This document shows, in pieces, positions 2-59,704 of a stretch of 64,000 nucleotides of DNA. Positions within the stretch are counted from its first letter, which is position 1. Each line of letters opens with the position of its first letter. The notes beneath the pieces were generated by a model. The model did no database searches and was not told where the DNA came from. It saw only the letters and a list, made by a program, of their open reading frames with translations. Made by a program: the position numbers and the translations under genes. Source of the stretch: Nitrosococcus halophilus Nc 4. Lineage in GTDB: Bacteria; Pseudomonadota; Gammaproteobacteria; Nitrosococcales; Nitrosococcaceae. The stretch is from contig NC_013960.1 of assembly GCF_000024725.1 (NCBI RefSeq), forward strand, positions 1,820,261 to 1,884,260. Direction: 5' to 3'.

Positions 2-3000
2 GTCGCGCAGACCCATTTGCGAAGCAATCTGGACGATCTATTGGTGATGACTCTAGCCCGGGTTTTGGCACAACATAGTGGTCAATCCGCTGTGCGCATA
101 TACCGAGAAAGCCATGGCCGGGATCTCAGCTTCAGCGGCTTGGATCTGAGCCGAACAGTGGGTTGGTTTACCAGTCTTTATCCCCTGCTGTTGAGGGTGC
201 CCACGGCTCGGGAGGAAGCGCTTAAAACGCTCAAAGAACAGCTCCATGCGGTTCAGAATCAAGGCTTGGCCTTTGGGGCCTTATCCCATTGGAGTGATTG
301 GGAACCGGCAGATCATCGTATCGAGGTGCTGTTTAACTATCTGGGGCAGTTGCAGTGGGATGGCCAGGGGATGTTGTCATTTCTGAGTGCAGGGCTCTGG
401 CGGTCGCCAGGAAGCAGGCGGGATGCCCCCTTGGTGATCAATGCCCACCAGCAGGAGGGGGAGTTGATAATGGCGCTGGAATTCAGCCCTGTCCATTTTG
501 AGCCTTCCTTGCAGCAGGCACTGATGGCCGCTTTTGAAGCAGAACTGAAGGCCCTGATGGATTGCTGCGAGCAGCATGGACCTTGGTTGACACCGTTCGA
601 TGTCCCCCTGTCCGGCCTCAATCAGGAAGCCTTGGATCAGCTGTCGAAGTTGGAGCTGGAAAATGTTCTGCCCCTCTCACCCTTGCAGCAGGGCTTGCTA
701 TTTCATAGCGAATTGAGTCAACAAACCGATACCTATGTCAACCAGCTAAGCTTGCCCCTGTCAGGCTTGGATTCCGCTCGTTTTGAGCAGGCCTGGCAGC
801 GCCTGGTACAGCGTCATTCCATATTGAGAAGCGCCCTGCTGGCTGGTGAGGGGAAAGTCGAGCAGCCCCTGCTAGGGGTGTGGCGGTCAATAACGCTGCC
901 CTGGAGCCGGCAGGATCTGCGTGGGGAGGAGGATGCGGTCCAGGCTATGGAGAGGGTTCGGGCCGAGCGCCGGCAGCAGGGGTTTAATTTGTACCGCCCT
1001 CCTTTGTGGCATGTGGATCTGTTGCAAACGGGGGACGAGGATTATCACTGTGTGCTGACCTTGCATCATTTGCTTATGGATGGTTGGAGCACCGGTATCC
1101 TGCTGCAGGAGTTGCTGCAATTGTATCATGGCCGGGCGCTCCTGCCTGAACCGCCTCCATTCAGTGCCTTTCTGCAATGGTTGGCGGATAAGGATCAAAT
1201 GCGCGCGCGGGCCTTCTGGCAAGATTACCTATCAGCTATCGCTTCCCCTACTTGGCTAGCTTCCAGTGTGGGGCAGGTTTCAGAAGCAAAGGATTTCCGC
1301 CGTCATTCTGTGATCTTGGATTCCAAGCTGCAGCAACATCTCCAGGAACAGGCCCGCCAGCAGGGCGTTACCTTGAGTACCCTGATGCAGGGGGCTTGGG
1401 CGCTGATATTGTCCCGTTATACCGGCCAGCAGCAGGTGGTCTTCGGCAATACCGTTGCCGGACGGCCGCCTGAGCTGCCCGGCAGCGAGCGTATGTTGGG
1501 GCTGTTTATTAATACCTTGCCGGTAGCAGTCAAGATACCTGCCGTTGAGCCCTGCGGGCGTTGGCTATTGGCGCTACAGCAGGCGGGCTTGGATACTCGG
1601 GAGCATGGCCATCTGCCCCTGTTTGAAATACAGCAGGCTGCCGGTTGGGCCGGTGAGGGACTGTTCGACACCCTGATGGTATTTGAGAACTACCCTCTGG
1701 ATGACAACCTGCTTAACAGTAAGGCTGATGGATTGACCATTGGCGCTCCAGATAGCTACGAGTTTACCCATTATCCTCTGACGTTGGCGGTATTGCCGGG
1801 CACCGAGTTGCAAGTGGTGTTTGCCTATAATGCGGCGGTGTTGCCGCCAAGGGTGATAGCGCCGCTGGCGGAGGCCTTCAAGCAAGCGTTAATGGCGTTG
1901 GCTACACAGCCCGAGGCGCCGCTGGCCTCTATTGCAAGCATTACCCCGGAGCAAAGGGAACGTCTCAAGTTGTGGTCAGGGGGGAGTGAGGCGTATGGGC
2001 GTGGGGTGACATTAGCGGGATTGATATCGGCGCAGGCGGCGCGGCGACCGGAGTCGGAAGCGCTGGTCAGTGGAGAGGAGCGGGTCAGCTACGGCGAGCT
2101 GGAGTCGAGGAGCGAGCGTTTGGGGCGCTGGTTGCGTTCGCAAGGAGTGAGCGCGGAGACCGTGGTGGGGGTGCTGCTCGAGCGAGGGGTGGGGATGATA
2201 GAAAGCTTTTTAGGGATACTCAAAGCGGGGGGAGCGTTTTTACCGCTGGACCCGGACTATCCCGAAGAGCGGCTGGGGTACATGCTCCGAGACAGCGGGG
2301 TAGAGCTGCTGCTGAGCGAGAGCGGTTTGGCGGGTCGGCTGCCGGCGGTGGAGGGGCTGCGGGTAGTGGCGTTGGACCGGCTGGACTACGGGGCGGAGGA
2401 GTCCGGGGATTTAGCAGTCCCCGTGCATCCGGAGCAACTGGCCTATGTGATTTACACCTCTGGGTCCACGGGACAACCCAAAGGAGTGGGGGTGACCCAA
2501 GGGGGGCTAAGCATGCACGTGCAAAGCATCGGGGAGCGCTACGGGATGGGCCCGGAAGATGTGGAGCTGCACTTTGCTTCTATTAGTTTTGACGGAGCGG
2601 TGGAGCGTTGGGCGGTGCCGCTGGCCTTTGGCAGTCGGCTGGTGATACGGGATCAAGGGTTATGGAGCGCGGAGCGGACCTGCCAGGTATTGGAAGAAGA
2701 AGGGGTGACGATTGCCTGTTTTCCACCGAGCTACGTGGGGCCCCTGCTGGATTGGATTGAGCACCGCCGCCCGCAGCTCAAGGTGCGCTCCTGGACGTTG
2801 GGGGGAGAGGCCTTCACGCGGGAGCTTTATGAGCGGCTGCAGCGGGTGCTCAAGCCGCGGCGGGTTCTCAACGGCTACGGGCCGACGGAGACGGTGGTCA
2901 CGCCGCTGCTGTGGGAAGCTGATGAGGGCACGGCGATGAGCAGCGCCTATGCGCCCATCGGCACGGCGGTGGGAGCGCGGCGGCTGTACGTACTGGATGG

Positions 3001-6000
3001 AGAATTAAACCGGGTGCCGCCGGGGGTCAGTGGCGAGCTCTATATTGGCGGAGAGGTGGGTTTAGCGCGGGGGTATTGGGGTCGAGCGGGGCAGACGGCC
3101 GAGCGGTTTTTGCCGGACCGGTGGGGAGCGCCGGGAGAGCGGATGTACCGCACGGGGGACTGGGTGCGGTGGCGAGCAGACGGGGTGGTGGAATATTTAG
3201 GCCGGGTGGACGGCCAAGTCAAGCTGCGCGGTTTTCGGATAGAGCTGGGAGAGATTGAGACGCGGCTATTGGCGTTAGCGCAGGTGCGGGAAGCGGTGGT
3301 GGTGATGCGCCGGGGGCCGGGGGGCGAGCGGCTGGTGGGGTATGTGGCGGCGCCGCCGGAGGTTGAGGGAGAGCGGTTACGGGCGGCGTTGGCGGGGCAG
3401 TTGCCCGAGTATATGGTGCCGAGCCAGGTGGTGAGATTGGAGGCGTTGCCGCTGACCCCGGCGGGGAAGGTGGACCGGCAGGGGTTGCCGGAGCCGCGGT
3501 GGTCAGCCGAGGGGTATGAGCCGCCGCAGACCGAGGCCGAGGCGGTATTGGCCCAGGTGTGGGGGCAGTTGCTGGGGGTCGAGCGGGTCGGACGCCAGGA
3601 CCGCTTCTTTGAACTGGGGGGGCACTCTCTGCTGGCAATGCAGGCCGTGAGCCTGTTGCGCCGGGATTATCAAAAGCAGGTACCGTTGCAGGTACTGTTT
3701 GACTCTCCTCGGTTGGCCGACTGTGCGGCGCGCTTGATCGATGCCGTTGATGAGGACGAAATCATTGTGGCCGCGCCCAGGGACCAAGATCTGCCCACCT
3801 CATCTGCTCAACGCCGTCTTTGGTTTGTGCAACAGCTCAATCCTGAAGGCGGGGCCTACCATTTACCGCTCGGGTTAAGATTGCAAGGGACGCTGGATTT
3901 GACTGCGCTGCAAGCGGCGCTGGATCACTTGGTCGAACAGCACGAAATATTGCGCACCCGTTTTGTGGAGCATAATGGTGAGCCGTGGCAGCGGATTCTC
4001 CCCGAAGCGCCACTCAAAATAAACTATATTGATTTGCGCGAGCAGCCACAGCCCCAGGATAGGGCGGCGGAGCTGTTCCAGGAATGGTTAAGGCAGCCCT
4101 TTGATCTGGCCAGAGATCCCTTGCTGCGCTTGGGTGTGGTCCGGCTGGATGAGCGTTGCTACCAATTGTTGCTGGTGCAGCATCATATCATCACCGACGG
4201 CCGCTCAACCGCCCATTTCCTCGAATCCCTAATCAATGCATATCGGGCCATTGTGGCCGGGGAGCTGTTGTCGGAAGCTCCGCCGCGGCTGCAATACGCC
4301 GATTACGCAATCTGGCAACAGCGCTGGCTGCAAGGTAAAAAGGCGCAGCAGCAACTGGATTATTGGCGCCAAGCTCTGGGAACGGATACCGAGCCGCTGG
4401 AGCTTCCCACCGACTTTCCCCGGAGCAGGACGACTCCTCCCCAGGGTGCGCGCTACCATTTTCGCTTGACTACGGTCCAGGCCCAGGGATTACAGCAACT
4501 GGCGAGAGCCCATGAGACGACCCTTTTTACCCCGCTTCTAAGCTTGTGGTTGCTGCTCTTATCTCGTTACAGCGGCCGGCGGGATATTCGAGTCGGCATT
4601 CCTGTAGCGGGGCGGGTCCGCCCTGAAACTGAAACCCTGCTAGGTTGCTTTATCAATACCGTGGTGCTAGGGGTTCAGATCGACCCGAATAGTTCCTTTG
4701 CTGGGCTGATGGAGCAGGTCAAGGGGCGCTCGGCCGAAGCCCAAAGCCATCAGGAGCTGCCCTTCGAAGCTCTGGTGGAGGCCCTGGGAGTAGGACACAG
4801 CCTGGAATACCATCCCCTGTTTCAGGTGACCTTTAATCATCAGCAAATGGTTACAGAGGCATTGGCGGAGTGGCCCCATGGGAGTGTGACTCCCTTTGAT
4901 CCTGGTGCCGCCGGGGTGCAGTTTGACCTGGCTATGGATACGGAACTCCATAGTGACGGTAGTATCCGCGGTTACCTCAGCTATGCCAGCCAGTTGTTTC
5001 ACAAGGCCACTATTGAGCGTTTGTGGGGGCATTATTTGAACCTGCTGGATGCCGTATTAAACGATGGGAGTCGGCCTGTGGCCAATTTTCCGCTACTGAG
5101 CCAAACCGAGCAGCAGCAGTTGGGGCGTTGGAATGATAGCGGTGTCGCGCGAGATCCGTTTGTGCCCATACCCATTAGGCAGAGCCGGCAGGCGATGGAA
5201 ACCCCTGAGGCCGTTGCTTTGAGTTTTAATGGCCGGCAATTGAGCTATGGCGAATTGGAACGCTGGGTTAATCAACTTGCCCACCGATTGCAGCGCGCCG
5301 GCGTAGGTCCTGAGATTCGGGTTGCCATCAGCCTGCACCGCTCGGTGGAGCTGGTGGTCGGTATTCTGGCGATTACCCGGGCAGGGGGGGGCTATGTGCC
5401 CCTGGATCCCAGTTACCCGGAGGAACGCTTGCGCTACATTTTGGCGGCGGCGGAGCCGGCGCTGGTGTTGACGCAGAGCACCCTGGCTTTGACTGGGTTG
5501 GAAGATCCCGGTTGTCCTTGCTGGTCTCTGGATGATCTGGACTGCAGTGATGAGCCCGCCTACCCGCCGATGGTCGATTGGCATCCAGATCAGGCCCTCT
5601 ATGTGATTTACACCTCCGGGTCCACGGGGCGTCCCAAGGGGGTGGTCAATACCCATGCCGCCTTGGAAAATCGCTTGCTGTGGATGCAGGAGCAATATTC
5701 GCTGGGCGGCGATGATTGTGTTTTGCAGAAAACGCCTTTCAGTTTCGACGTATCGGTTTGGGAATTCTTTTGGCCCTTCATGGTAGGCGCCCGTTTGGCG
5801 GTGGCGCCGCCGGAGGCGCACCGTGATCCAGTTGCATTGCAGCGGGTGATCGAGGCTGAACAGGTCACGACGCTGCATTTTGTGCCGTCCATGCTGCAGG
5901 CCTTTATCGCGGCCACCCATCTGGTCGGTTGCGCTTCCCTTAGAAAGGTGATTTGCAGCGGCGAAGCGCTGAGCATGGATCTGCAGCAGCAGGTGTTACA

Positions 6001-6976: not shown

Positions 6977-9900
6977 GTTTAGATAAGCAGGCGCTGGCCC
7001 AGCGTTTTCTAGCCTTAGGTGACGCTGATCAAGAGCGCTTTTTAGCTGCGTTGCGGGAAAAAAGTCTCCGTTTCGATCGCTTGCCCATCGTCAAAGGAAA
7101 AAGGAGCAATCGGGCACCGTTGGCACCGGCCCAACGCCGATTATGGTTATTGCACCAGATGGAGCCGGACAACAGCGCCTATCACATGGTAGGCGCATTT
7201 GAACTTAGCGGAGTGGTACAGAGTGAAGCACTGCGCGGAGCGCTGGCGGATATTCAGCGCCGTCATGAAGCGCTGCGTACCCGTTTTGTTGAGATTGACG
7301 GTGAACCCTGGCAGGTGATTGACGAGCATCCGCCCCTGGCGCTTACCGAACAGGACATGACTGACGCAGACAGCAGTACCATTGAGCATCTGGCGGATGA
7401 TCATGCCCAGGCTGGGTTTGACCTGAGCCGTGGGCCCCTGCTGCGAATCCAGCTGCTCCGGTTGACATCCCAGCGTTGGCGTTTGCAGGTGGTGATGCAC
7501 CATATTATTTCCGATGGCTGGTCTATCGGCATCTTTTTCAAGGAATTGGAACAGGCTTGGCGGACCCGCCAAGCCGGCAACACCGAAGGGCTGCCAGCGC
7601 TGGCAGTGCAGTATGCGGATTACGCCATCTGGCAGCGGGCCTGGTTGAATGCCGGTGAGCGGGAGCGCCAACTGGCCTATTGGCGTGATCAGCTGGAGCC
7701 GGGACAACCGCCCTTGTTGCTGCCCTATGACACGCCAGTGGCTGACAGTGATCTCCGTCAGGCTGCCGCGGAGCGGTTAAGCTTGCCAGTGTCATTAGTC
7801 ACAGCCTTGCGCATGCTGGCGCGGGAATGCGATGCCACCTTGTTTACCGTATTGTTGGCTGCCTGGCAGTGGGCGCTGGCGGTACAGAGCGGACGTCGTG
7901 ATATTCCGGTGGGCGTGCCTGTGGCCAACCGGAACCGGCCCGAAATTGCCCCCCTGATCGGCTTTTTCGTCAATACCTTGGTGTTGCGCGGCCAGCCGGA
8001 CCCGGCCGCATCAGTGCGCGACTGGGTGAGGCAACTGCACACCCGGATGCTGGATGCTCAGGATCACCAAGCGTTGCCTTTCGATCAACTGGTGGAGGCT
8101 ATTGCGCCCCGGCGGAAGCCGGGAGAAACTCCGCTGTTCCAGGTCTTGTTCAATTATCAGCGGCGAGATGCCCAGGCCTTTGAAGTGTTGCCGGGCGTGA
8201 CCCTGCGGCCCCTATCCCAAGGCGTGCCTCATGCCCTTTTTGATCTGGCGCTGGATGCGGACGAGCAGGCCGATGGTCAGGTGAGTCTTACCCTGACCTA
8301 CGCCGCGGACCGTTTCAAAGCGGATACCATCTCGCGCTTGCTAAGTATGCTTGAACAAGCCTTGAGCGGCTTCACTCAAGATGCCCAGCGACCTCTCGGT
8401 AGTTTGGAACTGCTGACCCCGGAGCAAAGGGAACGTCTCAAGTTGTGGTCAGGGGGGAGTGAGGCGTATGGGCGTGGGGTGACATTAGCGGGATTGATAT
8501 CGGCGCAGGCGGCGCGGCGACCGGAGTCGGAAGCGCTGGTCAGTGGAGAGGAGCGGGTCAGCTACGGCGAGCTGGAGTCGAGGAGCGAGCGTTTGGGGCG
8601 CTGGTTGCGTTCGCAAGGAGTGAGCGCGGAGACCGTGGTGGGGGTGCTGCTCGAGCGAGGGGTGGGGATGATAGAAAGCTTTTTAGGGATACTCAAAGCG
8701 GGGGGAGCGTTTTTACCGCTGGACCCGGACTATCCCGAAGAGCGGCTGGGGTACATGCTCCGAGACAGCGGGGTAGAGCTGCTGCTGAGCGAGAGCGGTT
8801 TGGCGGGTCGGCTGCCGGCGGTGGAGGGGCTGCGGGTAGTGGCGTTGGACCGGCTGGACTACGGGGCGGAGGAGTCCGGGGATTTAGCAGTCCCCGTGCA
8901 TCCGGAGCAACTGGCCTATGTGATTTACACCTCTGGGTCCACGGGACAACCCAAAGGAGTGGGGGTGACCCAAGGGGGGCTAAGCATGCACGTGCAAAGC
9001 ATCGGGGAGCGCTACGGGATGGGCCCGGAAGATGTGGAGCTGCACTTTGCTTCTATTAGTTTTGACGGAGCGGTGGAGCGTTGGGCGGTGCCGCTGGCCT
9101 TTGGCAGTCGGCTGGTGATACGGGATCAAGGGTTATGGAGCGCGGAGCGGACCTGCCAGGTATTGGAAGAAGAAGGGGTGACGATTGCCTGTTTTCCACC
9201 GAGCTACGTGGGGCCCCTGCTGGATTGGATTGAGCACCGCCGCCCGCAGCTCAAGGTGCGCTCCTGGACGTTGGGGGGAGAGGCCTTCACGCGGGAGCTT
9301 TATGAGCGGCTGCAGCGGGTGCTCAAGCCGCGGCGGGTTCTCAACGGCTACGGGCCGACGGAGACGGTGGTCACGCCGCTGCTGTGGGAAGCTGATGAGG
9401 GCACGGCGATGAGCAGCGCCTATGCGCCCATCGGCACGGCGGTGGGAGCGCGGCGGCTGTACGTACTGGATGGAGAATTAAACCGGGTGCCGCCGGGGGT
9501 CAGTGGCGAGCTCTATATTGGCGGAGAGGTGGGTTTAGCGCGGGGGTATTGGGGTCGAGCGGGGCAGACGGCCGAGCGGTTTTTGCCGGACCGGTGGGGA
9601 GCGCCGGGAGAGCGGATGTACCGCACGGGGGACTGGGTGCGGTGGCGAGCAGACGGGGTGGTGGAATATTTAGGCCGGGTGGACGGCCAAGTCAAGCTGC
9701 GCGGTTTTCGGATAGAGCTGGGAGAGATTGAGACGCGGCTATTGGCGTTAGCGCAGGTGCGGGAAGCGGTGGTGGTGATGCGCCGGGGGCCGGGGGGCGA
9801 GCGGCTGGTGGGGTATGTGGCGGCGCCGCCGGAGGTTGAGGGAGAGCGGTTACGGGCGGCGTTGGCGGGGCAGTTGCCCGAGTATATGGTACCGAGCCAG

Positions 9901-12354
9901 GTGGTGAGATTGGAGGCGTTGCCGCTGACCCCGGCGGGGAAGGTGGACCGGCAGGGGTTGCCGGAGCCGCGGTGGTCAGCCGAGGGGTATGAGCCGCCGC
10001 AGACCGAGGCCGAGGCGGTATTGGCCCAGGTGTGGGGGCAGTTGTTGGGGGTCGAGCGGGTCGGACGCCAGGACCGCTTCTTTGAACTGGGGGGGGATTC
10101 CATTATTGCCTTGCAGGTGGTCAGCCGGGCCCGTCAGGCGGGCTGGTCGCTCCGTCCCCGGGACCTGTTCGAGCAGCCCACCCTAAGCGCCCTGGCCGCC
10201 GTGGTGCAACCGGCCAAGGCCAGTAATGCGGTCCAGGAGAGTTTGGTTGGTCCGCTACCTTTGACGCCAATCCAATCCCATTTCTTTGAGTTGCAGCCAC
10301 CTGTTCCCTCACACTGGAATCAGCATTTGTGGTTAGCTTTAAAGGTGCCGCTGGATGTGACGGCATTATCGGCGGCATTGCAGGCCTTGATGCGGCATCA
10401 TGATGCCTTACGTTTGCATTTCCGGCAGCAAGGGGGGCAATGGCAACAGTCATTTGTCGACCCGGCGGAGCTGAACAGCGAGCTCCTGTGGGTGCGAGCC
10501 GCTGAGGGCGAGGAGGAAGTGGAGCGGTGGTGCAACGAAGTTCAGCGCAGCCTCGATATTGAAACTGGAGAGCTGCTGCGGGCCCTGTATGTCAGCAGCC
10601 CCAGTCAGCCGGATCGGCTGCTGTTGTGCATTCACCATCTGGCCGTGGACGGAGTCTCCTGGCGTATTTTGCTGGAAGACCTGTTGCGTGCTTATCAACA
10701 GTACTTGGCCGGGGAGGCCATTGAACTGCCTGCCAAGACCCATAGCCTGCGGGATTGGTCCCAAGCGCTGTCGGCATGGGCCAAGACTGCACAGGCCGAG
10801 TCTCGTTTACCATTCTGGCAACAGCAATTCACAGAAACGACAAGCTGCCGGACCCCATTCGCAAAATGCGGTCACTGGACGATGATGTTGAGTAAGGCCG
10901 AGACCCAAAAATTGCTTTATCAGGCACCGGCGCAGCTCGATGTAAATGTCCCCGCTTTGCTCGTAACGGCGCTGGTGCAGGTATTGGCCGATGAGCGGCA
11001 ACCGCGAATCGCCGTAAATCTGGAAGGGCATGGGCGTACAGAGGAGGTCACCCCCCATCTGGATGTCAGCCGCACTGTGGGCTGGTTTACCAGCTTTTAT
11101 CCGGTAGCGCTGGAGTGGCAGCCCGATCTCCAACGTTGCATGGCCGGGGTGGCGGAACAGTTGCGCCGTGCCGATCAGGATGGCGGGATCAGCTATGGGG
11201 CGTTGCGTTATCAGGGCCATGAGAGTAGCCGTAGGCAACTGGCAGGGGCAGCCGCTGCTCCCGTCACCTTTAATTATTTGGGGCAGTACCGTTCCGATGG
11301 GCTGGAGCACTGGTTTTCGCCATTGCCCGGCGGCGGTGATCCACAGGCGCCGGAGAATCCCATGGCGGCACCCCTATCGGTCAACGCTCAAGTAGTGGCA
11401 GGGCAATTAAGTCTGGACTGGCTGTATAGCCAGGATCATTATAACCCTTTGCAGATCAAGCAACTGGCCCAGTGCTATAAGCAAGTGCTGCTTACCCTGT
11501 TGGAAACGCCGGTAAGTAACGTGCCCGCCGCGGCTGATCCCCGCTTGCTGGTTCCCTTGGCTGAGGCTTCATTGGAGCAACCGCCGGTGTTTTGTATTCA
11601 CCCGGTGACCGGTCGCGTCAATGGCTATCAGCCTTTAGCCATGGGTCTACAGGGGCATCGAACCCTGATTGGACTGCAATCCCGTAGTTTTGTGGATACC
11701 CTTTGGTTTGACCCTAGTCTCAGCCAGATGGCGGACCGTTATGTGGCAACTTTGCGCTACCGGCAACCGGTAGGGCCTTATTATTTGCTGGGTTGGTCAT
11801 TGGGGGGTGCCTTGGCCATGGAAATAGCCTGCCGGCTTGAACAAGCCGGCGAGGGTATCGCTTTTCTAGGCTTGTTAGATAGTTATGTGCCGGGATTCGA
11901 AATCCCTGAGGATCAGTGGACTTCTCCCCAGGCCCAGCAAAAGTTGGCAGACCATCTACGAATATTGTTACCGGGTGTGGCTGAGGAGGGTTTACAGCAT
12001 TGCCTGGCTCAGTTCAGCGAGTCGCAACCACGGCAATGGCCGGAGATCTTCTCGGCCTGGTTATCCACTCAGGGGGTTGATGCCGTGAGCGCAGAAAATG
12101 CCCAGCAACTCCTGTTTTCATGGGCTCTGGAACAGCATTACCGTCGGCTTTGTGACGGTTATACCTTGCCCTCGGTGAGCACAAAGGCACACGCCTGGTG
12201 GGCGGGTAAGCCGGAGGGTCGAGGCCAGCAGCTTCAGCAGGCCTTGCAGGAAAAGGTTCGATTGACCTTCAGTCGCATCGTTGCCGCAGATCACCTCAGC
12301 ATTGTCCGGGATGCTGAATGTCTCTCGGATCTGCATGAATCACTCCGAATCTAA
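6973..12354 (+). CDS. Non-ribosomal peptide synthetase, terminating module (C-A-PCP-E-TE)
   Basis: This 1,793-residue protein carries the final module. It has a condensation domain (about residues 45-470, PLAPAQRRLWLLHQM, HHIISDG), an adenylation domain (about 482-1000) identical in sequence to A1 of the preceding gene, a carrier with the GGDS signature (about 1042) typical of carriers before epimerases, an epimerization domain (about 1093-1510, HHLAVDG, DVSRTVGWFTSFYP) and a type I thioesterase (about 1535-1793, GWSLGG nucleophile near 1607, Asp in LLDSY, His in ADHLSIV). It overlaps the upstream NRPS stop by ATGA. By family knowledge it adds the last residue, epimerises it to D and releases the peptide. 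The shared A domain implies that the last residue equals the one chosen by A1. About 126 AT-rich bases follow before the next gene. Confidence 0.95.
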   Translation: MSLDKQALAQRFLALGDADQERFLAALREKSLRFDRLPIVKGKRSNRAPLAPAQRRLWLLHQMEPDNSAYHMVGAFELSGVVQSEALRGALADIQRRHEALRTRFVEIDGEPWQVIDEHPPLALTEQDMTDADSSTIEHLADDHAQAGFDLSRGPLLRIQLLRLTSQRWRLQVVMHHIISDGWSIGIFFKELEQAWRTRQAGNTEGLPALAVQYADYAIWQRAWLNAGERERQLAYWRDQLEPGQPPLLLPYDTPVADSDLRQAAAERLSLPVSLVTALRMLARECDATLFTVLLAAWQWALAVQSGRRDIPVGVPVANRNRPEIAPLIGFFVNTLVLRGQPDPAASVRDWVRQLHTRMLDAQDHQALPFDQLVEAIAPRRKPGETPLFQVLFNYQRRDAQAFEVLPGVTLRPLSQGVPHALFDLALDADEQADGQVSLTLTYAADRFKADTISRLLSMLEQALSGFTQDAQRPLGSLELLTPEQRERLKLWSGGSEAYGRGVTLAGLISAQAARRPESEALVSGEERVSYGELESRSERLGRWLRSQGVSAETVVGVLLERGVGMIESFLGILKAGGAFLPLDPDYPEERLGYMLRDSGVELLLSESGLAGRLPAVEGLRVVALDRLDYGAEESGDLAVPVHPEQLAYVIYTSGSTGQPKGVGVTQGGLSMHVQSIGERYGMGPEDVELHFASISFDGAVERWAVPLAFGSRLVIRDQGLWSAERTCQVLEEEGVTIACFPPSYVGPLLDWIEHRRPQLKVRSWTLGGEAFTRELYERLQRVLKPRRVLNGYGPTETVVTPLLWEADEGTAMSSAYAPIGTAVGARRLYVLDGELNRVPPGVSGELYIGGEVGLARGYWGRAGQTAERFLPDRWGAPGERMYRTGDWVRWRADGVVEYLGRVDGQVKLRGFRIELGEIETRLLALAQVREAVVVMRRGPGGERLVGYVAAPPEVEGERLRAALAGQLPEYMVPSQVVRLEALPLTPAGKVDRQGLPEPRWSAEGYEPPQTEAEAVLAQVWGQLLGVERVGRQDRFFELGGDSIIALQVVSRARQAGWSLRPRDLFEQPTLSALAAVVQPAKASNAVQESLVGPLPLTPIQSHFFELQPPVPSHWNQHLWLALKVPLDVTALSAALQALMRHHDALRLHFRQQGGQWQQSFVDPAELNSELLWVRAAEGEEEVERWCNEVQRSLDIETGELLRALYVSSPSQPDRLLLCIHHLAVDGVSWRILLEDLLRAYQQYLAGEAIELPAKTHSLRDWSQALSAWAKTAQAESRLPFWQQQFTETTSCRTPFAKCGHWTMMLSKAETQKLLYQAPAQLDVNVPALLVTALVQVLADERQPRIAVNLEGHGRTEEVTPHLDVSRTVGWFTSFYPVALEWQPDLQRCMAGVAEQLRRADQDGGISYGALRYQGHESSRRQLAGAAAAPVTFNYLGQYRSDGLEHWFSPLPGGGDPQAPENPMAAPLSVNAQVVAGQLSLDWLYSQDHYNPLQIKQLAQCYKQVLLTLLETPVSNVPAAADPRLLVPLAEASLEQPPVFCIHPVTGRVNGYQPLAMGLQGHRTLIGLQSRSFVDTLWFDPSLSQMADRYVATLRYRQPVGPYYLLGWSLGGALAMEIACRLEQAGEGIAFLGLLDSYVPGFEIPEDQWTSPQAQQKLADHLRILLPGVAEEGLQHCLAQFSESQPRQWPEIFSAWLSTQGVDAVSAENAQQLLFSWALEQHYRRLCDGYTLPSVSTKAHAWWAGKPEGRGQQLQQALQEKVRLTFSRIVAADHLSIVRDAECLSDLHESLRI
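8416..10095 (+). repeat. Near-identical adenylation-domain repeat, copy 2 of 2
   Basis: Second copy of the 1,680-bp block at 1943-3622, in the same orientation and in frame, 6,473 bp further on. The boundaries fall at ACCCCGGAGCAAAGG on the left and in the G-run of the carrier FFELGG motif on the right. Confidence 0.95.
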
Positions 12355-24474: not shown

Positions 24475-26154
24475 TTAAAACCGGACACTCATACTGGCGC
24501 TGACAGTACGAGGAGCACCCGGTGTGAGTATGCCGAATTGGGCATTTGCAAAGTGGCGCTTGTCTAGGAGATTGTCCACATTCACGCGGAGGGTGGCCAG
24601 TGTGCCGCCGAGCTGCATATTATAGCGGGCACCAAGGCCAAATACGTCGAAATCAGGAGCATCATCGCCGGTATTGAAGTCGTTCAGGGGTCGCGACCCG
24701 GTGCGGGTCCAACTACCGCTGAAAACCAAACCGGGGAAGACTCGAGGCGCGTACTCTGTAACCAACGCCATTCGGTGGCCGGGTACCCCAGAAGGGCGAT
24801 TGCCCTCGATAGCGGGATCTTCCATATCCTTGAGCTCGGCATCTAACAGCATGGCGCTGCCGAACACGATCCATTCGGGGGTAATCCGCCCGGTCACTGA
24901 AAACTCTACGCCCCGGTGGATTTGGCTGCCGTCCTGGACAAACGTATTGGCGGCGTTCACGATTTCGGCTGTACGGTCAATTTGAAATAGGGCCGCCTCT
25001 GCCCTCATTTCATCCAGTTCTACCTTGGCGCCGATTTCGATTTGATTACTGGTCAGTGGTCCGAGCTGCTGATTTTGATTGGTGGTGCCCAAGGGGGCGA
25101 CGCCCCCCGCCTCGAGCCCTTCGATGTAACTCACATAGGTGGAAATGTTGGATAGGGGCTTGAACACCAGCGCAACGCTTGGTGTCAGCACGCTCTCATC
25201 AAAGCGTGCGGTCAAGGCGCCGGTGCTATCAAAGCTTTTTTCGTCGCGCCCCGTATAACGGCCGCCCAGATGAAGTTTCCAGGCCTCCCCGAAGGAGAGG
25301 ATATCATGGGCGAATACCCCCTGCTCCTTGATGCGCATGGTGGCAAAGGATGGCGGAGCTTGGGGCGAAGGATCCGGGATGGACACCGGGTTAAAGATAT
25401 TGGTGGTGCCAATTTCCTCGAAAAAGCCGTCGCCCCAGCGAGTCTTGAGGCGATGATCGGAGTACCCGAATGCCAGTTCATGGGCGATGGGGCCGGTGGT
25501 AAGTTCTCCTCTAATCATCGCTCGGGCGCTGAAGGGCTCGCGGGTCTGATCAGGGCTGAAGAACAGAAAGACGGTAGCATCCCCATTAGGCTGGAGGCTG
25601 TCGAGCAAGATTGAGTTCTGCTCCCGGTCCAAGCGCATCCAGTTTCCTTCCGCTACGATCGACCATTGATCACTGAGAAAATGCTCAAGTTTGCCGCTTA
25701 CGAGCGTAAAGGTGGTGGGGAAGGTGGCCCAGGTTTGGCCTAAGAAGGTCTCTGGATCGAACCCTGAAGGAATGTTGCCATTCACATCTGCCAGCAGGTC
25801 GGGTTGGGTGATCTGATCTCTTTCCTCATGTTCTACATCAAATTGGAATAACGTATCGGGCGTAATCCGCCAATCGGCTGCAAGACTGACGAACGGTCGT
25901 TCGCTCTCGACCTGGTCAACAAAGGATTTCTGCTCTTCCCAGGCCGCATTGACCCGAACGCCGAAGTTACCGTTATCGGTACGACGGCTGAAGTCGGCAT
26001 GGGCTCTGATGTTGCCGAACTCATTGCCTACCACATGGAGCGCATTGATAGGCTCGAAGGCTGGTCGTTTGGTGACATAGTTGACTAAACCGCCTGGCGC
26101 CCCAAAGCCCGCTTGCAAGGCCGATGGGCCTTTGAGAATTTCAACGCGCGCCTT
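24475..26154 (-). pseudogene. TonB-dependent siderophore receptor, 3' part (split by IscB element)
   Basis: This codes for 559 residues of plug and barrel, beginning at KARVEILKGPSALQAGFG and ending in a typical terminal aromatic (SVRF). The 5' part lies beyond the IscB element at 27798-28292. Joining the codon before the element (AAT) to the first codon after it (AAG) gives ...GLENKARVEILKGPSA..., with exactly the spacing usual in this family, so an uninterrupted 724-residue receptor would result. In the present arrangement the frame stays open into the element up to 26289, but that product would lack a signal peptide and the first half of the plug. It lies 60 bp from the convergent end of the ABC exporter. 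Its substrate is unknown; siderophore-type by the NYVTKRP block. Confidence 0.9.
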
Positions 26155-27797
26155 GAAGGAGTACAAGGAAGTGCGACGCCCCCCTAGCGAGAGTGCGCAG
26201 CGCAGCGGAGCATCGAGCGCGAGGGCCGCATTACTTGCTGTCGTCGCCGTATTTGGTTCAGACAGCCGAAAGACTGTAGTCATAACCATCTCCCCTCTGT
26301 ATTAGTTTGAAATTTATCCAGTTGGCCGAGATCTTCCCGGCCTTGGCTTTCACATCAAAGGTGCCGCTAGCCCGAATGCTGGCCAGTATCCCAACATGAT
26401 CGCCAGCGTACTTGCCTTGGGGTTGCGAGAGCCTGACGAGATCACCCGTTTGAAATCCCTTTACTCGCCTACACCGCCCCGCCTTGCCGCGAGGAAAGCC
26501 ATATTTGTCGGTTCTGACGACTTGCCTTGTTCCGCGCCCCGTGGCTTTGATATGTAGCGCCCGATAACCTTCAGTTATTGTCACTTGCTCAGCGCTTTCG
26601 CCAACACATGCCGCGTCTATCCAATGGTCTTTGGTATAGCCTTGGCTGATCCTGTTTTTCTTGGTGCGCCCACCAGACCAAAAAGAAGTCGGCAATCCCA
26701 CTGACTGAATAGTGCACCCGATGGCGTAGCGGGTAGCATTGACCGCCGCTGCATCTTTTAGAGGCAGCTTGGATTTGGACTGGATCTGGGTATACCCAAA
26801 CTCGGCCGCCGTTTTGCTGTTCTTTTTTTTGTTGCAGGGCGCGCGGGCCAGGGTTAAATTAGATACCCGATTACTACCCCCCCTCGATCTCGGTATAATA
26901 TGCTCAACCTCTAGCGGGATATCTTTCTTATTGCAATAAGCGCACTTCCTGTCCCACTTCTCTAGCAGATATTCGCGCACCTCATACCCCATCAACTCGC
27001 CCTGCTGATACTCAACGCCGTTAATTTCAGGGTTCTGAATTTTTTGAGTATCAAAGCGCACAGTTTCGATATGACATTCTGAAATGGGAACTCTATCTAG
27101 CAGACGATTAAACCAGCTCGAAACGTTTTCAACCCGCGAGTTTAGCGATGGCGGCAGCCAACCCTTCGGTTTTGTTCTGTTTAGAAATCGTGGCGCACGA
27201 TAGCGGGTCTTTCTGCCTCTACGACCTCGGCGCAAACTACGACGACTAGCCAGCCGCTCACGGATGGCGTACCCGCGATGGGTAAGATTGGCGGCCCATA
27301 ACACCACGCGCCCCTGTTGAGGAAAATTCCCAACTAAAGCCAGCCCGGTTATTTTGCTGCCCGGATCAACCTTAAATTCAACCGGCTGCGGGTTGGGATC
27401 AACCCTATATTTCAGGATGATCGTAAATGGCTGCATCCGATAAACGCCAGCCTTCCCGTCTCGCAACAGCCGTCTTGCCCTTGCTGGGCTGCATGGCATC
27501 AACGGTTTTCTATCAGTGTCTAATACAAAAACTCTATTCATTAGCTTTTGCTACTCTAAAAGTTAGGGTTCTCTCGCCAATGTTTGAAGGGTCGTTCAGT
27601 CTCGGCATTCGCTCCTGTGTCGCTCCGTAGTTCATTGCCTTTGACCTCAGTGCCTGGGGCTGAGAAATGCACCCCAGGGTGAGTCGCTTTCGCTTCAACT
27701 TCAAACGTAGCCCCGAAGGGCTGAGGCTGGTTGAGCCAACCAACTCATTCGGAAAGTTCAGGACGAACTTGGAGAATGAGTTAGGCGACGACTCAAC
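26155..27797 (-). mobile_element. IscB/omega-RNA insertion element, copy 1 (1,643 bp)
   Basis: The block 26155-27797 equals 51142-52784 except for four substitutions that I can see. Both boundaries are sharp, and outside them the sequences differ completely. On the - strand it holds the omega-RNA scaffold, the iscB gene and about 100 GC-rich bases. It has no transposase gene, so it must be moved in trans, by family knowledge by an IS200/IS605 Y1 transposase. No target-site duplication is seen, as expected for that group. It interrupts a TonB receptor gene. The two copies are direct repeats about 25 kb apart. Confidence 0.92.
26258..27541 (-). CDS. iscB: IscB RNA-guided nuclease, copy 1
   Basis: This 427-residue protein has the complete IscB layout. 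The PLMP domain is at residues 1-45 (DRKPLMPCSPARARRLL). RuvC-I is at FKVDPGSKITGLAL with Asp59. An Arg-rich bridge helix lies at about 92-120 (RRSLRRGRRGRK). RuvC-II is at CHIETVRFD with Glu159. The HNH domain has CxxC at 200-203, EHIIPRSRGGSN with His214, and CNKKK at 236-240. RuvC-III is at KDHWIDAAC with His306 and Asp309. The C-terminal domain, by homology target-adjacent-motif reading, runs from about 345 to 427. All expected catalytic residues are present, so it could be active. IscB proteins are Cas9's ancestors and cut DNA using an omega-RNA encoded just upstream of their gene; such a scaffold precedes this gene. It differs from copy 2 at residue 32 (Gly here, Ala there). Confidence 0.95.
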   Translation of the reverse strand: MNRVFVLDTDRKPLMPCSPARARRLLRDGKAGVYRMQPFTIILKYRVDPNPQPVEFKVDPGSKITGLALVGNFPQQGRVVLWAANLTHRGYAIRERLASRRSLRRGRRGRKTRYRAPRFLNRTKPKGWLPPSLNSRVENVSSWFNRLLDRVPISECHIETVRFDTQKIQNPEINGVEYQQGELMGYEVREYLLEKWDRKCAYCNKKDIPLEVEHIIPRSRGGSNRVSNLTLARAPCNKKKNSKTAAEFGYTQIQSKSKLPLKDAAAVNATRYAIGCTIQSVGLPTSFWSGGRTKKNRISQGYTKDHWIDAACVGESAEQVTITEGYRALHIKATGRGTRQVVRTDKYGFPRGKAGRCRRVKGFQTGDLVRLSQPQGKYAGDHVGILASIRASGTFDVKAKAGKISANWINFKLIQRGDGYDYSLSAV

Positions 27798-27813
27798 ATT
27801 CTCTAGCCCGGTG
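27542..27813 (-). ncRNA. Predicted omega-RNA of IscB copy 1 (scaffold plus about 16-nt guide)
   Basis: The 256 bases before iscB are kept in both element copies and fold into nested hairpins. On the - strand GTTGAGTC (element edge) pairs with GGCTCAAC. Inside is AACTCATTC/GAATGAGTT (27742-27750 with 27774-27782), enclosing AAGTTC/GAACTT. Further on are AGCCC/GGGCT with a tetraloop (27709-27722) and CCTGGGG/CCCCAGG (27653-27678). By analogy with known IscB systems the guide is the flanking DNA 5' of the scaffold, here caccgggctagagaat (27813 down to 27798), which is receptor coding sequence for TGLEN. The RNA ends and the guide length are not determined. Confidence 0.75.
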
Positions 27814-28292
27814 GCTTGCTGGTTTATTATCCTTAAGCCGTTGTAGCGGTAGTTGTTGAAATTATTCAAATTTAAGCCACGGATGGCCAGATTGGTAAAT
27901 GCACCTGGATTGACGGCGGAGGAGGTCACGCTGGCATCGAGTCGATCCATCGCACCGATGTCATTAAAAGATTGATTGAAAAATAACTCCCATGGCGCTA
28001 CTTTGACTGAAAATGGCGTATCCAACAGTGGTTGATCACCAAAACCTGCTAAGGCAGAATCTTTTGCCTTGTAGCCTTGGCTTGCGCCTTCTGCCTCAGT
28101 TTCGGAGGTGACGGTCACCATTGGCAATCTCATCTCTTCTGCTTGTGTCGGCTCCTCGGCACCGGTTTGCTGGGCATGGGCCTGTCCAGCAAACGCTAAC
28201 CCAAGCAGTGCATAAGGCAGCGAAAGGGAAAATAGGGTGCGTTGGAGGCGAATAAAATTCTTGGTCATTTTTTTGGGGGTTTTAGTCTTCAT
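27798..28292 (-). pseudogene. TonB-dependent siderophore receptor, 5' part (split by IscB element)
   Basis: This codes for the first 165 residues of a receptor: a signal peptide (about residues 1-40, LPYALLGLAFAGQAHAQ), a TonB-box-like region (MVTVTSETEAEG) and the first half of the plug (LLDTPFSVKVAPWELF, NLAIRGLNLNNFN, RYNGLRIINQQ). It stops in mid-plug at the codons for GLEN, where the IscB element begins. Continued reading into the element gives about 87 unrelated residues translated from the omega-RNA region before a stop near 27534. The rest of the receptor is at 24475-26154. The gene is non-functional unless the element is excised. Confidence 0.9.
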
Positions 28293-50909: not shown

Positions 50910-51266
50910 GTGGATAGGCACCAAGAGTACAAATTTATTAAAGAGTTTCTGCGGCTTTCACACAAAAAGCGAATTTATTTTGCAATACGAATCTTGGCGC
51001 AATTGGATGAAACCAATTTTTGGTTTCTGTATCGTCAAGAGCTGCGATCGGATCTTTTACTCAGATTCATGGCGCGGGAAATCCAAATGAACAAGAGAGG
51101 TTTGGGTAGGAAAGGCTCGGATAGGCCAAAGGTATTACGTAGAAGGAGTACAAGGAAGTGCGACGCCCCCCTAGCGAGAGTGCGCAGCGCAGCGGAGCAT
51201 CGAGCGCGAGGGCCGCATTACTTGCTGTCGTCGCCGTATTTGGTTCAGACAGCCGAAAGACTGTAG
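50910..51266 (+). CDS. Hypothetical small protein, 3' end overwritten by IscB element
   Basis: This frame starts with GTG. The first 77 residues (helical, charged, e.g. FIKEFLRLSHKKRIYF and FLYRQELRSDLLLRF) come from host DNA; the remaining 41 are translated from the antisense side of the IscB element end. If it is a real gene, its 3' part was displaced by the insertion. No ribosome site is visible and I recognise no family. Confidence 0.3.
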   Translation: MDRHQEYKFIKEFLRLSHKKRIYFAIRILAQLDETNFWFLYRQELRSDLLLRFMAREIQMNKRGLGRKGSDRPKVLRRRSTRKCDAPLARVRSAAEHRARGPHYLLSSPYLVQTAERL

Positions 51267-52784
51267 TCATAACCATCTCCCCTCTGTATTAGTTTGAAAT
51301 TTATCCAGTTGGCCGAGATCTTCCCGGCCTTGGCTTTCACATCAAAGGTGCCGCTAGCCCGAATGCTGGCCAGTATCCCAACATGATCGCCAGCGTACTT
51401 GCCTTGGGGTTGCGAGAGCCTGACGAGATCACCCGTTTGAAATCCCTTTACTCGCCTACACCGCCCCGCCTTGCCGCGAGGAAAGCCATATTTGTCGGTT
51501 CTGACGACTTGCCTTGTTCCGCGCCCCGTGGCTTTGATATGTAGCGCCCGATAACCTTCAGTTATTGTCACTTGCTCAGCGCTTTCGCCAACACATGCCG
51601 CGTCTATCCAATGGTCTTTGGTATAGCCTTGGCTGATCCTGTTTTTCTTGGTGCGCCCACCAGACCAAAAAGAAGTCGGCAATCCCACTGACTGAATAGT
51701 GCACCCGATGGCGTAGCGGGTAGCATTGACCGCCGCTGCATCTTTTAGAGGCAGCTTGGATTTGGACTGGATCTGGGTATACCCAAACTCGGCCGCCGTT
51801 TTGCTGTTCTTTTTTTTGTTGCAGGGCGCGCGGGCCAGGGTTAAATTAGATACCCGATTACTACCCCCCCTCGATCTCGGTATAATATGCTCAACCTCTA
51901 GCGGGATATCTTTCTTATTGCAATAAGCGCACTTCCTGTCCCACTTCTCTAGCAGATATTCGCGCACCTCATACCCCATCAACTCGCCCTGCTGATACTC
52001 AACGCCGTTAATTTCAGGGTTCTGAATTTTTTGAGTATCAAAGCGCACAGTTTCGATATGACATTCTGAAATGGGAACTCTATCTAGCAGACGATTAAAC
52101 CAGCTCGAAACGTTTTCAACCCGCGAGTTTAGCGATGGCGGCAGCCAACCCTTCGGTTTTGTTCTGTTTAGAAATCGTGGCGCACGATAGCGGGTCTTTC
52201 TGCCTCTACGACCTCGGCGCAAACTACGACGACTAGCCAGCCGCTCACGGATGGCGTACCCGCGATGGGTAAGATTGGCGGCCCATAACACCACGCGCCC
52301 CTGTTGAGGAAAATTCCCAACTAAAGCCAGCCCGGTTATTTTGCTGCCCGGATCAACCTTAAATTCAACCGGCTGCGGGTTGGGATCAACCCTATATTTC
52401 AGGATGATCGTAAATGGCTGCATCCGATAAACCGCGGCCTTCCCGTCTCGCAACAGCCGTCTTGCCCTTGCTGGGCTGCATGGCATCAACGGTTTTCTAT
52501 CAGTGTCTAATACAAAAACTCTATTCATTAGCTTTCGCTACTCTAAAAGTTAGGGTTCTCTCGCCAATGTTTGAAGGGTCGTTCAGTCTCGGCATTCGCT
52601 CCTGTGTCGCTCCGTAGTTCATTGCCTTTGACCTCAGTGCCTGGGGCTGAGAAATGCACCCCAGGGTGAGTCGCTTTCGCTTCAACTTCAAACGTAGCCC
52701 CGAAGGGCTGAGGCTGGTTGAGCCAACCAACTCATTCGGAAAGTTCAGGACGAACTTGGAGAATGAGTTAGGCGACGACTCAAC
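51142..52784 (-). mobile_element. IscB/omega-RNA insertion element, copy 2 (1,643 bp)
   Basis: Same length and orientation as copy 1 (26155-27797), differing at about four bases: three clustered near 52435 (in the codons for residues 31-32) and one near 52535. Its omega-RNA end lies 3 bp after the stop of the DUF3422 gene, which it leaves intact. Flanks share no sequence with those of copy 1. No transposase gene is present. Confidence 0.92.
51245..52528 (-). CDS. iscB: IscB RNA-guided nuclease, copy 2
   Basis: This 427-residue protein is identical to copy 1 apart from residue 32 (Ala instead of Gly), at the end of the PLMP domain. All RuvC residues (Asp59, Glu159, His306, Asp309) and HNH residues (Cys200, Cys203, His214) are kept, so both copies look intact. 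Because scaffold and protein are the same, the two copies should share RNAs: each IscB could use either guide. The lack of decay suggests recent movement or continued selection. Confidence 0.95.
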   Translation of the reverse strand: MNRVFVLDTDRKPLMPCSPARARRLLRDGKAAVYRMQPFTIILKYRVDPNPQPVEFKVDPGSKITGLALVGNFPQQGRVVLWAANLTHRGYAIRERLASRRSLRRGRRGRKTRYRAPRFLNRTKPKGWLPPSLNSRVENVSSWFNRLLDRVPISECHIETVRFDTQKIQNPEINGVEYQQGELMGYEVREYLLEKWDRKCAYCNKKDIPLEVEHIIPRSRGGSNRVSNLTLARAPCNKKKNSKTAAEFGYTQIQSKSKLPLKDAAAVNATRYAIGCTIQSVGLPTSFWSGGRTKKNRISQGYTKDHWIDAACVGESAEQVTITEGYRALHIKATGRGTRQVVRTDKYGFPRGKAGRCRRVKGFQTGDLVRLSQPQGKYAGDHVGILASIRASGTFDVKAKAGKISANWINFKLIQRGDGYDYSLSAV

Positions 52785-52800
52785 TAATCAGTCCGCTCCC
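52529..52800 (-). ncRNA. Predicted omega-RNA of IscB copy 2 (scaffold plus about 16-nt guide)
   Basis: The scaffold is the same nested-hairpin sequence as in copy 1, with one T/C change near 52535 close to the iscB start. The guide predicted from the flank is gggagcggactgatta (52800 down to 52785). It covers the last codons and the TGA stop of the DUF3422 gene plus three bases. Transcription from the DUF3422 gene running into the element could supply the RNA. Ends and guide length are inferred by analogy. Confidence 0.75.
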
Positions 52801-54077
52801 TGATTCTGGGTTACCATACGCCGGATTTTCCGTACCCCCAGGGCGACTAGTAGGGCCACCACCGGGATTGAAATACCGATGGCCAAATCAGGGTTGATAG
52901 GTAAATGAGCCGCTTTGGCTGCTTTGGCAAGGTAACCTACCAGGCCCACCACATAATAAGTGATTGCCGCTACTGAAAGACCTTCCACCGTTTCTTGCAA
53001 GTGGAGCTGGAGCTTGGCCCGTTTTGCCATGGAAGAGAGAACCTGCTGATTCTGGTGCTCAAGGGAAATATTGACTCGGGTGCGTAATAACTCACTCGCC
53101 CGGCCGATACGCCGGGATAGATTTTCCTGTAGCCGGAGCACCGTCTCACAGGTATGCATTGCCGGCCCCATGCGCCGCTCGCAGAATTCTTTAAAGGTCT
53201 GCATTCCTTGGGCTCGCAACTCACGCAATTCACTAATGCGCCGCTGCACCAGCTCATAGTAAGCCTGAGCGGCGGTGATGCGATACTGGATGGAAGAGGC
53301 CATGCTTTCGGTGGTCGCCGCTAACTTCGTCAGCTGATCCAGAAGCGCTGGTTCTTCCTCGGTGGTGGCCGAGGCGATGGCTTCGGTAATCTTGGCTAAT
53401 TCTTGCTCAGCGCGCCCCAACTTCGGCATGGTTCTGCGCGCCAGTGGGTAGGTGGGCAGTGCTTGCATGAGATAGGACTCAATTTCCAGCAACCGTTGTA
53501 CCATCCGCCCGGCCTGACGTGGGGTGAGGCTAATGTCTTTGATGATAAATCGGCTAAAGCCGTCCCCATGGATACGAAAGTCGGCGTAAGCAATGGCCGC
53601 CCCTTCGCCGGTGCGGGCGCCGGTGAGCACATTACCCTCAAATAGATCTGCCAGCTCATCAGGACTGCGTGGTTTTTCGGGCATGGGATAGATGGCCAGG
53701 TGGGCAGCGACTAGGGTTTGTCCTGGTAACCCTGCTAGCCAGTCTTGGGGCACGCTTTCGATGACGGTGTTGGCGAAGGGTTCCTGGAAGGGGCCGCGCC
53801 GAAAAAAAGTGTAGCTGGTGAATTCCGTATGCTTCTGCCATTTGAGGCGAAATGGACCCAGATCGATGCGAAAGTGATTGCTTTTTGGAACTAGGATGGG
53901 GTGGCCAAAGCGGGCGCAAATCTCGGCGAGTTTTTCCCGTTCCAGCCCTTCCCTTCCAGGATCCGAGGTAAGCACAAGGTGTGATACTTGCTCCGGGGGA
54001 ACGAGTGATTCTGGCGGCCGGGCGTGCAGTTCGTTGTTGAGTAACCACCGTTGAGGATGATCGGCAGGTATCGTCAT
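52788..54077 (-). CDS. DUF3422 family membrane protein
   Basis: This 429-residue protein has the DUF3422 pattern: NNELHARPPESLVPPEQVSH near the N terminus, FTSYTFFRRG, then a helical middle with likely coiled coil (about 195-340), and two C-terminal membrane segments (AAITYYVVGLVGYLAKA and ISIPVVALLVALGV). Function is unknown. It is complete: the TGA at 52790-52788 lies 3 bp before the IscB element edge. No close operon partner; it is divergent from the P-type ATPase gene. Confidence 0.87.
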   Translation of the reverse strand: MTIPADHPQRWLLNNELHARPPESLVPPEQVSHLVLTSDPGREGLEREKLAEICARFGHPILVPKSNHFRIDLGPFRLKWQKHTEFTSYTFFRRGPFQEPFANTVIESVPQDWLAGLPGQTLVAAHLAIYPMPEKPRSPDELADLFEGNVLTGARTGEGAAIAYADFRIHGDGFSRFIIKDISLTPRQAGRMVQRLLEIESYLMQALPTYPLARRTMPKLGRAEQELAKITEAIASATTEEEPALLDQLTKLAATTESMASSIQYRITAAQAYYELVQRRISELRELRAQGMQTFKEFCERRMGPAMHTCETVLRLQENLSRRIGRASELLRTRVNISLEHQNQQVLSSMAKRAKLQLHLQETVEGLSVAAITYYVVGLVGYLAKAAKAAHLPINPDLAIGISIPVVALLVALGVRKIRRMVTQNQGAD

Positions 54078-54200
54078 AAGTCTAGGTTTGGGCTTGCTTC
54101 TGGTGAGGTAAAACTTCTGATTTTACCGAATTTTGGTCATTGATTATGTTCAAAATTACCACCCCTGCAAAAATTTTCACTGTAAAAGGTCCTATATTTT

Positions 54201-57491: not shown

Positions 57492-57604
57492 TCTGGACAG
57501 GCGGGCTAAACACCTAGCTAGCTAGTTAATTAAGAGTAACTTTACTAAGCTTTAAATTTAATAGAAGCCGTTTGAATTTATGTTCCAGGAGTGGAGAAGG
57601 CGCG

Positions 57605-58264
57605 ATGGGGTCAAAACAAGAGGCGGATTCTGAAACCAGGGCAAGGCAAGCGGAAACCCAGGCAATGCAGGAATGGGAAGAGCACGAGGTCAGGGAAGAA
57701 GAAAATGAGGCCATGGAAATGACGGAAAAGGCCTATCCTCGGAAGAAGCTGACCTTGGATGAAATGATGTTTTATGGTTTGCTCATCCTTTCGGTGGTAG
57801 GGGTTGCAATCACCCAGTCTTCTGTCATTGTGGGTCGCGCCTATTGGCTGGCCATGATACCGATTATTGCGGCCACTACCCTCTATGTAGAGTGGATAAG
57901 GGGCCGTGGACAGGGAATGAGATGGCGAACGCTACTGCGAACCCAACTTTTCCACTGGGGAGCGCTTTTGGTTTCTGTAGAGTTGGTGTACATGCTTTTC
58001 AATTTTGGCCGGCTCAGCAATGAAGCTGTAAGCTTAATGATTCTCCTGTTGCTGGCGCAGACGACTTTTCAGGTAGGCGTGTACGTGGATTGGCGGTTTT
58101 CCATAGTAGCCCTGTTCCAGGCTTTTTCTCTCATCGTGCTGGCTTATTTGAAAGCTTATATATGGATAATATTGTTAGTTGCTATCGGGATAATCGCCTT
58201 GGGGATTTATTTCCGTAGAAAATTTCCAGAAAAATTTTCATTTCCCCACCGCAGTCGCTTTTAA
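57605..58264 (+). CDS. Hypothetical integral membrane protein
   Basis: This 219-residue protein has a very acidic, Glu-rich, probably coiled N terminus (residues 1-50, EWEEHEVREEENEAME), followed by about six membrane segments from residue 55 on (MMFYGLLILSVVGVAI, YWLAMIPIIAATTLYV, HWGALLVSVELVYMLF and others) and a basic tail. I recognise no family. Start at ATG 57605 is chosen because GGAGTGGAGAAGG precedes it. It follows the ATPase-LysM gene by 113 bp in the same direction. Confidence 0.7.
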   Translation: MGSKQEADSETRARQAETQAMQEWEEHEVREEENEAMEMTEKAYPRKKLTLDEMMFYGLLILSVVGVAITQSSVIVGRAYWLAMIPIIAATTLYVEWIRGRGQGMRWRTLLRTQLFHWGALLVSVELVYMLFNFGRLSNEAVSLMILLLLAQTTFQVGVYVDWRFSIVALFQAFSLIVLAYLKAYIWIILLVAIGIIALGIYFRRKFPEKFSFPHRSRF

Positions 58265-59700: not shown

Positions 59701-59704
59701 CAAG

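What the first reader, a model, noticed from the sequence alone, without database searches (positions are those of the whole stretch)
27542..27813. Legible omega-RNA scaffold with a receptor-derived guide (copy 1)
The region before iscB is conserved in both copies and forms nested stems right up to the element edge, with GTTGAGTC pairing with GGCTCAAC as the outermost stem. The next 16 flanking bases, caccgggctagagaat, would be the guide and match the plug-domain codons TGLEN of the disrupted receptor. An intact allele would be the target, as expected for homing or retention after excision.
Basis: partly seen in the sequence, partly recalled or inferred. Interest (0 to 1): 0.7.

Follow-up and report, generated by a model that had tools for sequence, protein, structure and literature searches.

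The report
IscB guide RNA in jumping element
A small mobile element sitting inside a nutrient-receptor gene carries a Cas9-like cutter (IscB) and its guide RNA, whose aiming part is copied from the host DNA next to the element; this is a divergent but otherwise ordinary member of a known system, with one unusual twist, a changed zinc-finger residue in the cutter.

Summary
Window 27562-27797 (minus strand) is a divergent HEARO/omega-RNA: Rfam RF02033, full length, 62.9 bits, E 1.3e-11, but below Rfam's cut-off of 83, so standard annotation misses it. Across 13 homologues 27 of 36 structure pairs show compensatory change and the signal collapses when partners are slid. The stem GTTGAGTC/GGCTCAAC is real and covaries; it closes the 5' (guide-adaptor) hairpin, not the whole RNA.

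The 16-nt 'guide' matches the receptor because it is the receptor: joining the flanks restores a 724-aa TonB-receptor frame with no gap against homologues. Three sibling insertions have precise empty sites in sister species.

Homing on an intact allele remains untested: no orthologue of this receptor was found, no transposase bears these ends, and all four copies of this subfamily share Cys233Arg in the HNH zinc finger, a residue kept as Cys in essentially all homologues. New member of a known kind.

The parts
26155..27797 (-). iscB element copy 1 (1643 bp), omega-RNA end at 27797, other end at 26155
   Evidence: edges shared with copy 2 at 99.76% identity and with other genus copies; joined flanks restore the host ORF
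27562..27797 (-). omega-RNA scaffold (divergent HEARO, RF02033)
   Evidence: cmscan 62.9 bits, E 1.3e-11, model 1-211/211, below gathering 83; covariation
27798..27813 (-). guide: CACCGGGCTAGAGAAT, receptor codons TGLEN
   Evidence: 5' end of the transcript not measured; effective guides of about 14-17 nt reported for IscB (PMC9640706, PMC13180657)
27730..27797 (-). guide-adaptor hairpin (nt 1-68), outer stem GUUGAGUC/GGCUCAAC
   Evidence: 6 of 8 outer pairs with change on both sides; fold
27709..27722 (-). scaffold hairpin AGCCCUUCGGGGCU (nt 76-89)
   Evidence: 3 of 5 pairs compensatory
27582..27706 (-). region closed by central stem GUUUGAAG/CUUCAAAC (nt 92-99 with 209-216)
   Evidence: 7 of 8 pairs compensatory
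27646..27683 (-). stem-loop nt 115-152 (CUCA/UGAG and CCUGGGGU/GCCCCAGG)
   Evidence: 9 of 12 pairs compensatory
27576..27578 (-). nexus stem 3' strand (nt 220-222), pairs with nt 71-73 at 27725-27727
   Evidence: 2 of 3 pairs compensatory, 100% paired
26258..27541 (-). iscB, 427 aa (RRXRR PF14239 + HNH); RuvC D59/E190/H306/D309 and HNH H214 kept; Cys233 of the HNH C4 zinc finger is Arg
26151..26154 (-). inferred TAM AAGG, flank at the far edge
   Evidence: NNGG consensus of 9 genus insertions
26155..26239 (-). far end (85 bp), homologous to the end of TnpB elements in the same genomes
27798..28292 (-). TonB receptor, N-terminal and plug part (165 aa); its reading frame runs on through the omega-RNA to 27534
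24475..26154 (-). TonB receptor, rest of plug and barrel
51142..52784 (-). element copy 2: omega-RNA 52549-52784, iscB 51245-52528, guide 52785-52800, flank motif TACG at 51138-51141; lies just past the stop of a DUF3422 gene

Best explanation
A non-autonomous IS200/IS605-type (ISC) element encodes IscB and its omega-RNA. The RNA is transcribed from the host side: here the receptor's own transcription would run in the right direction. It carries about 16 nt of flanking receptor sequence as guide, joined to a structured scaffold that begins at the element edge. IscB bound to it would recognise the same 16 bp followed by NNGG, which is contiguous (guide + AAGG) only in a chromosome lacking the element. 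Cutting or nicking that copy would let recombination with an element-bearing sister restore the element after a peel-and-paste excision or after entry of an empty allele. The occupied site is spared because the guide is then followed by GTTG. Shown here: scaffold identity and covariation, edges, precise insertion, flank motif, kept RuvC residues. Inferred: transcription, RNP formation, cleavage, retention. Uncertain for this subfamily: HNH cutting.
For: RF02033 match over the full model. IscB domains, and PDB IscB relatives at E 7e-42 (TbaIscB) and 1e-23 (OgeuIscB). Covariation: 93.2% of cells paired against 76.1% shuffled and 26-44% when slid; 27 of 36 pairs compensatory. Joined flanks give a 724-aa receptor colinear with homologues (LEN|VQSVEILKG). 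Precise empty sites in sister species for three sibling insertions, without duplicated target; the best, L007 against G002, has the guide with 2 changes and AAGG kept. Flank motif: G at position 4 in 9 of 9 and at position 3 in 8 of 9; OgeuIscB uses NNRR (PMC9640706). Elements lie co-directional with and downstream of (or inside) a host gene in 9 of 10 own/genus loci and 26 of 36 family loci, as expected if the guide is made from host transcription.
Against: All four copies of this subfamily have Cys233Arg, one of the four cysteines of the HNH zinc finger; Cys in essentially all other homologues compared. In copy 1 the receptor frame stays open through the whole omega-RNA, so ribosomes might disrupt it. 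No TnpA with these ends was found in the genome. No intact allele of this receptor found.
Confidence: 0.85

Rival explanations
1. The omega-RNA and guide are genuine but this IscB subfamily is impaired: the HNH zinc finger is broken, leaving at best a RuvC nickase or a DNA-binding protein. The copies persist as transposition passengers or are served in trans by the intact IscB of other copies (L005, L006, L007).
For: Cys233Arg in all four subfamily copies, Cys elsewhere. A C4 zinc finger next to the catalytic His is reported in OrufIscB (PMC13180657). Intact relatives with nearly identical scaffolds are in the same genome. Truncated copies keep an omega-RNA without a full iscB.
Against: The other zinc ligands and all RuvC and HNH catalytic residues examined are kept, and the ORF is intact in three copies; a single Arg may be tolerated. 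The subfamily is the most recently copied in the genome.
Confidence: 0.35
2. The conserved 5' hairpin is kept only as the transposase-recognised end, and no guide RNA is made.
For: A mini-element of about 0.4 kb (L023) keeps just the hairpin-bearing end and the far end, so the hairpin does double as a mobile end.
Against: Covariation extends through the whole scaffold, including nexus and central stems 100-200 nt inside, and the Rfam model matches full length.
Confidence: 0.05
3. Chance stems in ordinary upstream sequence.
For: MFE z-score only -1.8; about 0.9% of positions near the element can form some 8-pair stem with a 40-60 nt loop.
Against: Rfam match E 1.3e-11; covariation far above shuffled and slid controls.
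Confidence: 0.01

Closest known systems
HEARO RNA / omega-RNA (Rfam RF02033)
   Same: full-length model match; guide-adaptor hairpin, nexus and central stems; lies directly upstream of iscB
   Different: 62.9 bits, under the 83-bit cut-off; guide-adaptor hairpin about 68 nt (43 nt in OgeuIscB) closed by GUUGAGUC/GGCUCAAC where most homologues aligned have GUCAAC/GUUGAC
OgeuIscB / OrufIscB / TbaIscB (OMEGA nucleases)
   Same: RRXRR N-terminus, split RuvC with conserved D/E/H/D, arginine-rich bridge segment, HNH; guide at the 5' end and TAM on the 3' side; inferred NNGG fits within OgeuIscB NNRR
   Different: 427 aa; HNH C4 zinc finger lacks one Cys in this subfamily; TAM inferred from flanks, not assayed
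ISC / IS200/IS605-family elements
   Same: no target duplication, precise empty sites, hairpin ends, far end shared with TnpB (IS605 OrfB) elements of the same genomes
   Different: no tnpA in the element and none found in the genome with matching ends
IsrB (HNH-less OMEGA nickase)
   Same: possible functional analogue if HNH is dead
   Different: HNH domain is present here

Membership tests
HEARO / omega-RNA (RF02033) | covariance-model match | tested here: inconclusive
   full length, E 1.3e-11, but below the gathering score; a different copy in the same genome (L031) scores 118
HEARO / omega-RNA (RF02033) | covarying conserved stems directly upstream of iscB | tested here: met
HEARO / omega-RNA (RF02033) | transcribed with the flank as guide | not testable with these tools
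   no RNA data
IscB | RRXRR/PLMP-RuvC plus HNH architecture, sequence kinship to solved IscBs | tested here: met
IscB | RuvC catalytic D/E/H/D and HNH His | tested here: met
   D59, E190, H306, D309, H214
IscB | complete HNH C4 zinc finger | tested here: not met
   Cys233 is Arg in four subfamily copies; a feature of the domain rather than a strict definition of the family
IscB | RNA-guided DNA cleavage next to a TAM | not testable with these tools
   flank motif NNGG is consistent only
IS200/IS605 (ISC) element | precise insertion without target duplication | tested here: met
   empty sites for L006, L007, L130; restored receptor frame for copy 1
IS200/IS605 (ISC) element | Y1 transposase recognising its ends | tested here: not met
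   none in the element; 17 Y1 hits in the genome, none with matching ends: non-autonomous at best

The most novel reading that the evidence does not exclude
An IscB lineage that lost one zinc ligand of its HNH domain before it spread, acting as a natural RNA-guided nickase (or binder) that still promotes retention of its element. Alongside it, IscB and TnpB elements in one genus share the same transposition end yet sit next to different motifs (NNGG against AANG), which would mean that the nuclease, not the transposase, decides which insertions survive.
Probability: 0.2. Interest if true: 0.6.

Novelty: new member of a known kind. Interest (0 to 1): 0.35.

Why it matters
It shows that a raw-sequence reader can find an omega-RNA that Rfam's cut-off misses. 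It also gives a natural set of about a dozen guides, flank motifs and empty sites in one genus for testing guide-directed retention, including a comparison of IscB and TnpB elements that share an end but not a flank motif.

Tried and rejected
Rfam at gathering threshold over the window: no hit; resolved with the E-value search. The guide as a match to a second target: in the family genomes nothing with 2 or fewer mismatches except the locus itself and one G004 site lacking other support; counts near the reversed-pattern control. Three exact hits of the 16-mer in viral contigs were not pursued, since a 16-mer is expected by chance in a collection of that size. Empty sites for copy 2, L008 and L129 were not clean, with indels at the junction. 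A search for a TnpA with the same ends was negative. Meers 2023, Altae-Tran 2021 and Kapitonov 2015 are not held in the library, so their content is from memory or second-hand (PMC11870625, PMC9755519).

Full report
What is there. The window holds two 1643-bp copies of one element (26155-27797 and 51142-52784, both minus), 99.76% identical. Each carries iscB (427 aa, PF14239 + HNH) preceded by about 260 nt that start at the element edge. The genome (4.15 Mb, 2 contigs; contig sizes fit Nitrosococcus halophilus, from memory) has three near-identical full copies, a fourth interrupted one, two at 83%, one at 78%, several truncated ones, and a separate iscB locus at 372 kb. Two sister species hold one related full copy each.

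The RNA. Rfam at its curated cut-off finds nothing. An E-value search finds HEARO RF02033 at 27562-27797 minus, whole model, 62.9 bits, E 1.3e-11. I took homologues found by IscB similarity, cut them from the hairpin edge, and aligned 13 of them. I then counted pairs of a structure written from the window RNA and the Rfam consensus: 93.2% of cells paired; 27 of 36 pairs with change on both sides; covariation score 0.487 against 0.184 shuffled and 0.04-0.16 when partners are slid. RNAalifold independently recovers four of the helices. Energy alone would not have shown this (z -1.8).

The guide and the target. The 16 nt outside the edge are the receptor's own codons, so the match is a consequence of the insertion and not separate evidence. 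What tests the model is whether the insertion is precise and what lies at the other edge. Joining the flanks gives one open frame of 724 aa, ungapped against the closest homologous receptors (TGLEN|KARVEILKG against ALEN|VQSVEILKG). For three sibling insertions an uninterrupted site exists in sister species, with no duplication or deletion at the junction. The clearest is L007: GGATTGCAAGATGGAT|AAGGAA here, GGATTGTAAAATGGAT|AAGGAA there. The far-edge flanks of nine genus insertions read NNGG (position 4 G in 9 of 9, position 3 G in 8 of 9), within the NNRR TAM of OgeuIscB. Copy 1 has AAGG. In the occupied locus the guide is followed by GTTG, which does not fit, so the element would spare itself (inference).

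Shared ends, different motifs. The far 85 bp are homologous to the end of many TnpB (IS605 OrfB) elements in the same genomes. Those 28 insertions have AANG at the same place. Position 4 G is common to both kinds; position 3 G separates them (8/9 against 6/28, Fisher p 0.0006, uncorrected). Some IscB and TnpB ends are nearly identical (L005 and L026, 58 of 60 by eye), so the difference is not explained by the end sequence. Selection by the nuclease's TAM is one reading; different transposases acting on similar ends is another. No Y1 transposase in the genome has matching ends.

Orientation. In 9 of 10 own or genus loci examined the guide side lies just after, or inside, a host gene running the same way. 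In the wider set it is 26 against 10 (p 0.011; longest-ORF heuristic, 12 loci undecided). This fits a guide made from host transcription. In copy 1 the receptor frame stays open through the whole omega-RNA and stops 8 nt inside iscB.

The protein. RuvC D59, E190, H306, D309 and HNH H214 are kept. Position 233, one of the four cysteines of the HNH zinc finger (a C4 zinc finger is described for OrufIscB, PMC13180657), is Arg in all four copies of the window subfamily and Cys in essentially all other homologues compared (one degenerate copy has Trp). So the subfamily spread carrying this change. Whether HNH still cuts is open.

What could not be shown. No orthologue of the receptor above about 35% identity was found in genus, family or 369 class genomes, and no second site matches the guide closely. 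Homing on an intact receptor allele therefore remains a prediction. Retention by transposon nucleases is described for TnpB (PMC11870625).

Verdict. A genuine, divergent member of the HEARO/omega-RNA-IscB kind in a non-autonomous IS605-like element: ordinary in kind, well supported by comparative evidence, with the zinc-finger change and the shared-end contrast as the parts worth a specialist's attention.

Noticed in passing
window 52241-64000 and genome C2 1872501-1915302: Element fragments at 1872501, 1893630 and 1914759 are spaced exactly 21129 bp apart; the middle one joins the left flank of the third to the right flank of window copy 2, with 100% identity over 2044 nt each side. This looks like a recent 21-kb tandem duplication made by recombination between iscB copies.
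   Followed up: partly
L008/L004 (C2 2974132-2975867) and L013/L012 (C2 1154780-1156976): Two divergent iscB copies are interrupted at the same element position (615-617) by inserts with the same ends (taccaattt...aaattggta), one about 93 bp and in frame (461-aa open frame), one about 1.4 kb: probably a MITE and a longer relative using the same target.
   Followed up: partly
L009, L010, L011: Truncated copies that keep a complete omega-RNA with its own or a shared guide but only the start of iscB: orphan guides that an IscB made elsewhere could use.
   Followed up: no
L023 (C2 3794165-3794563): A mini-element of about 0.4 kb made of the guide-adaptor hairpin end plus the far end, with a different terminal hairpin also seen in L007.
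   Followed up: no
window 1943-3622 and 8416-10095: A 1680-bp direct repeat at 99.88% identity inside two adjacent giant ORFs (2319 and 1793 aa).
   Followed up: no
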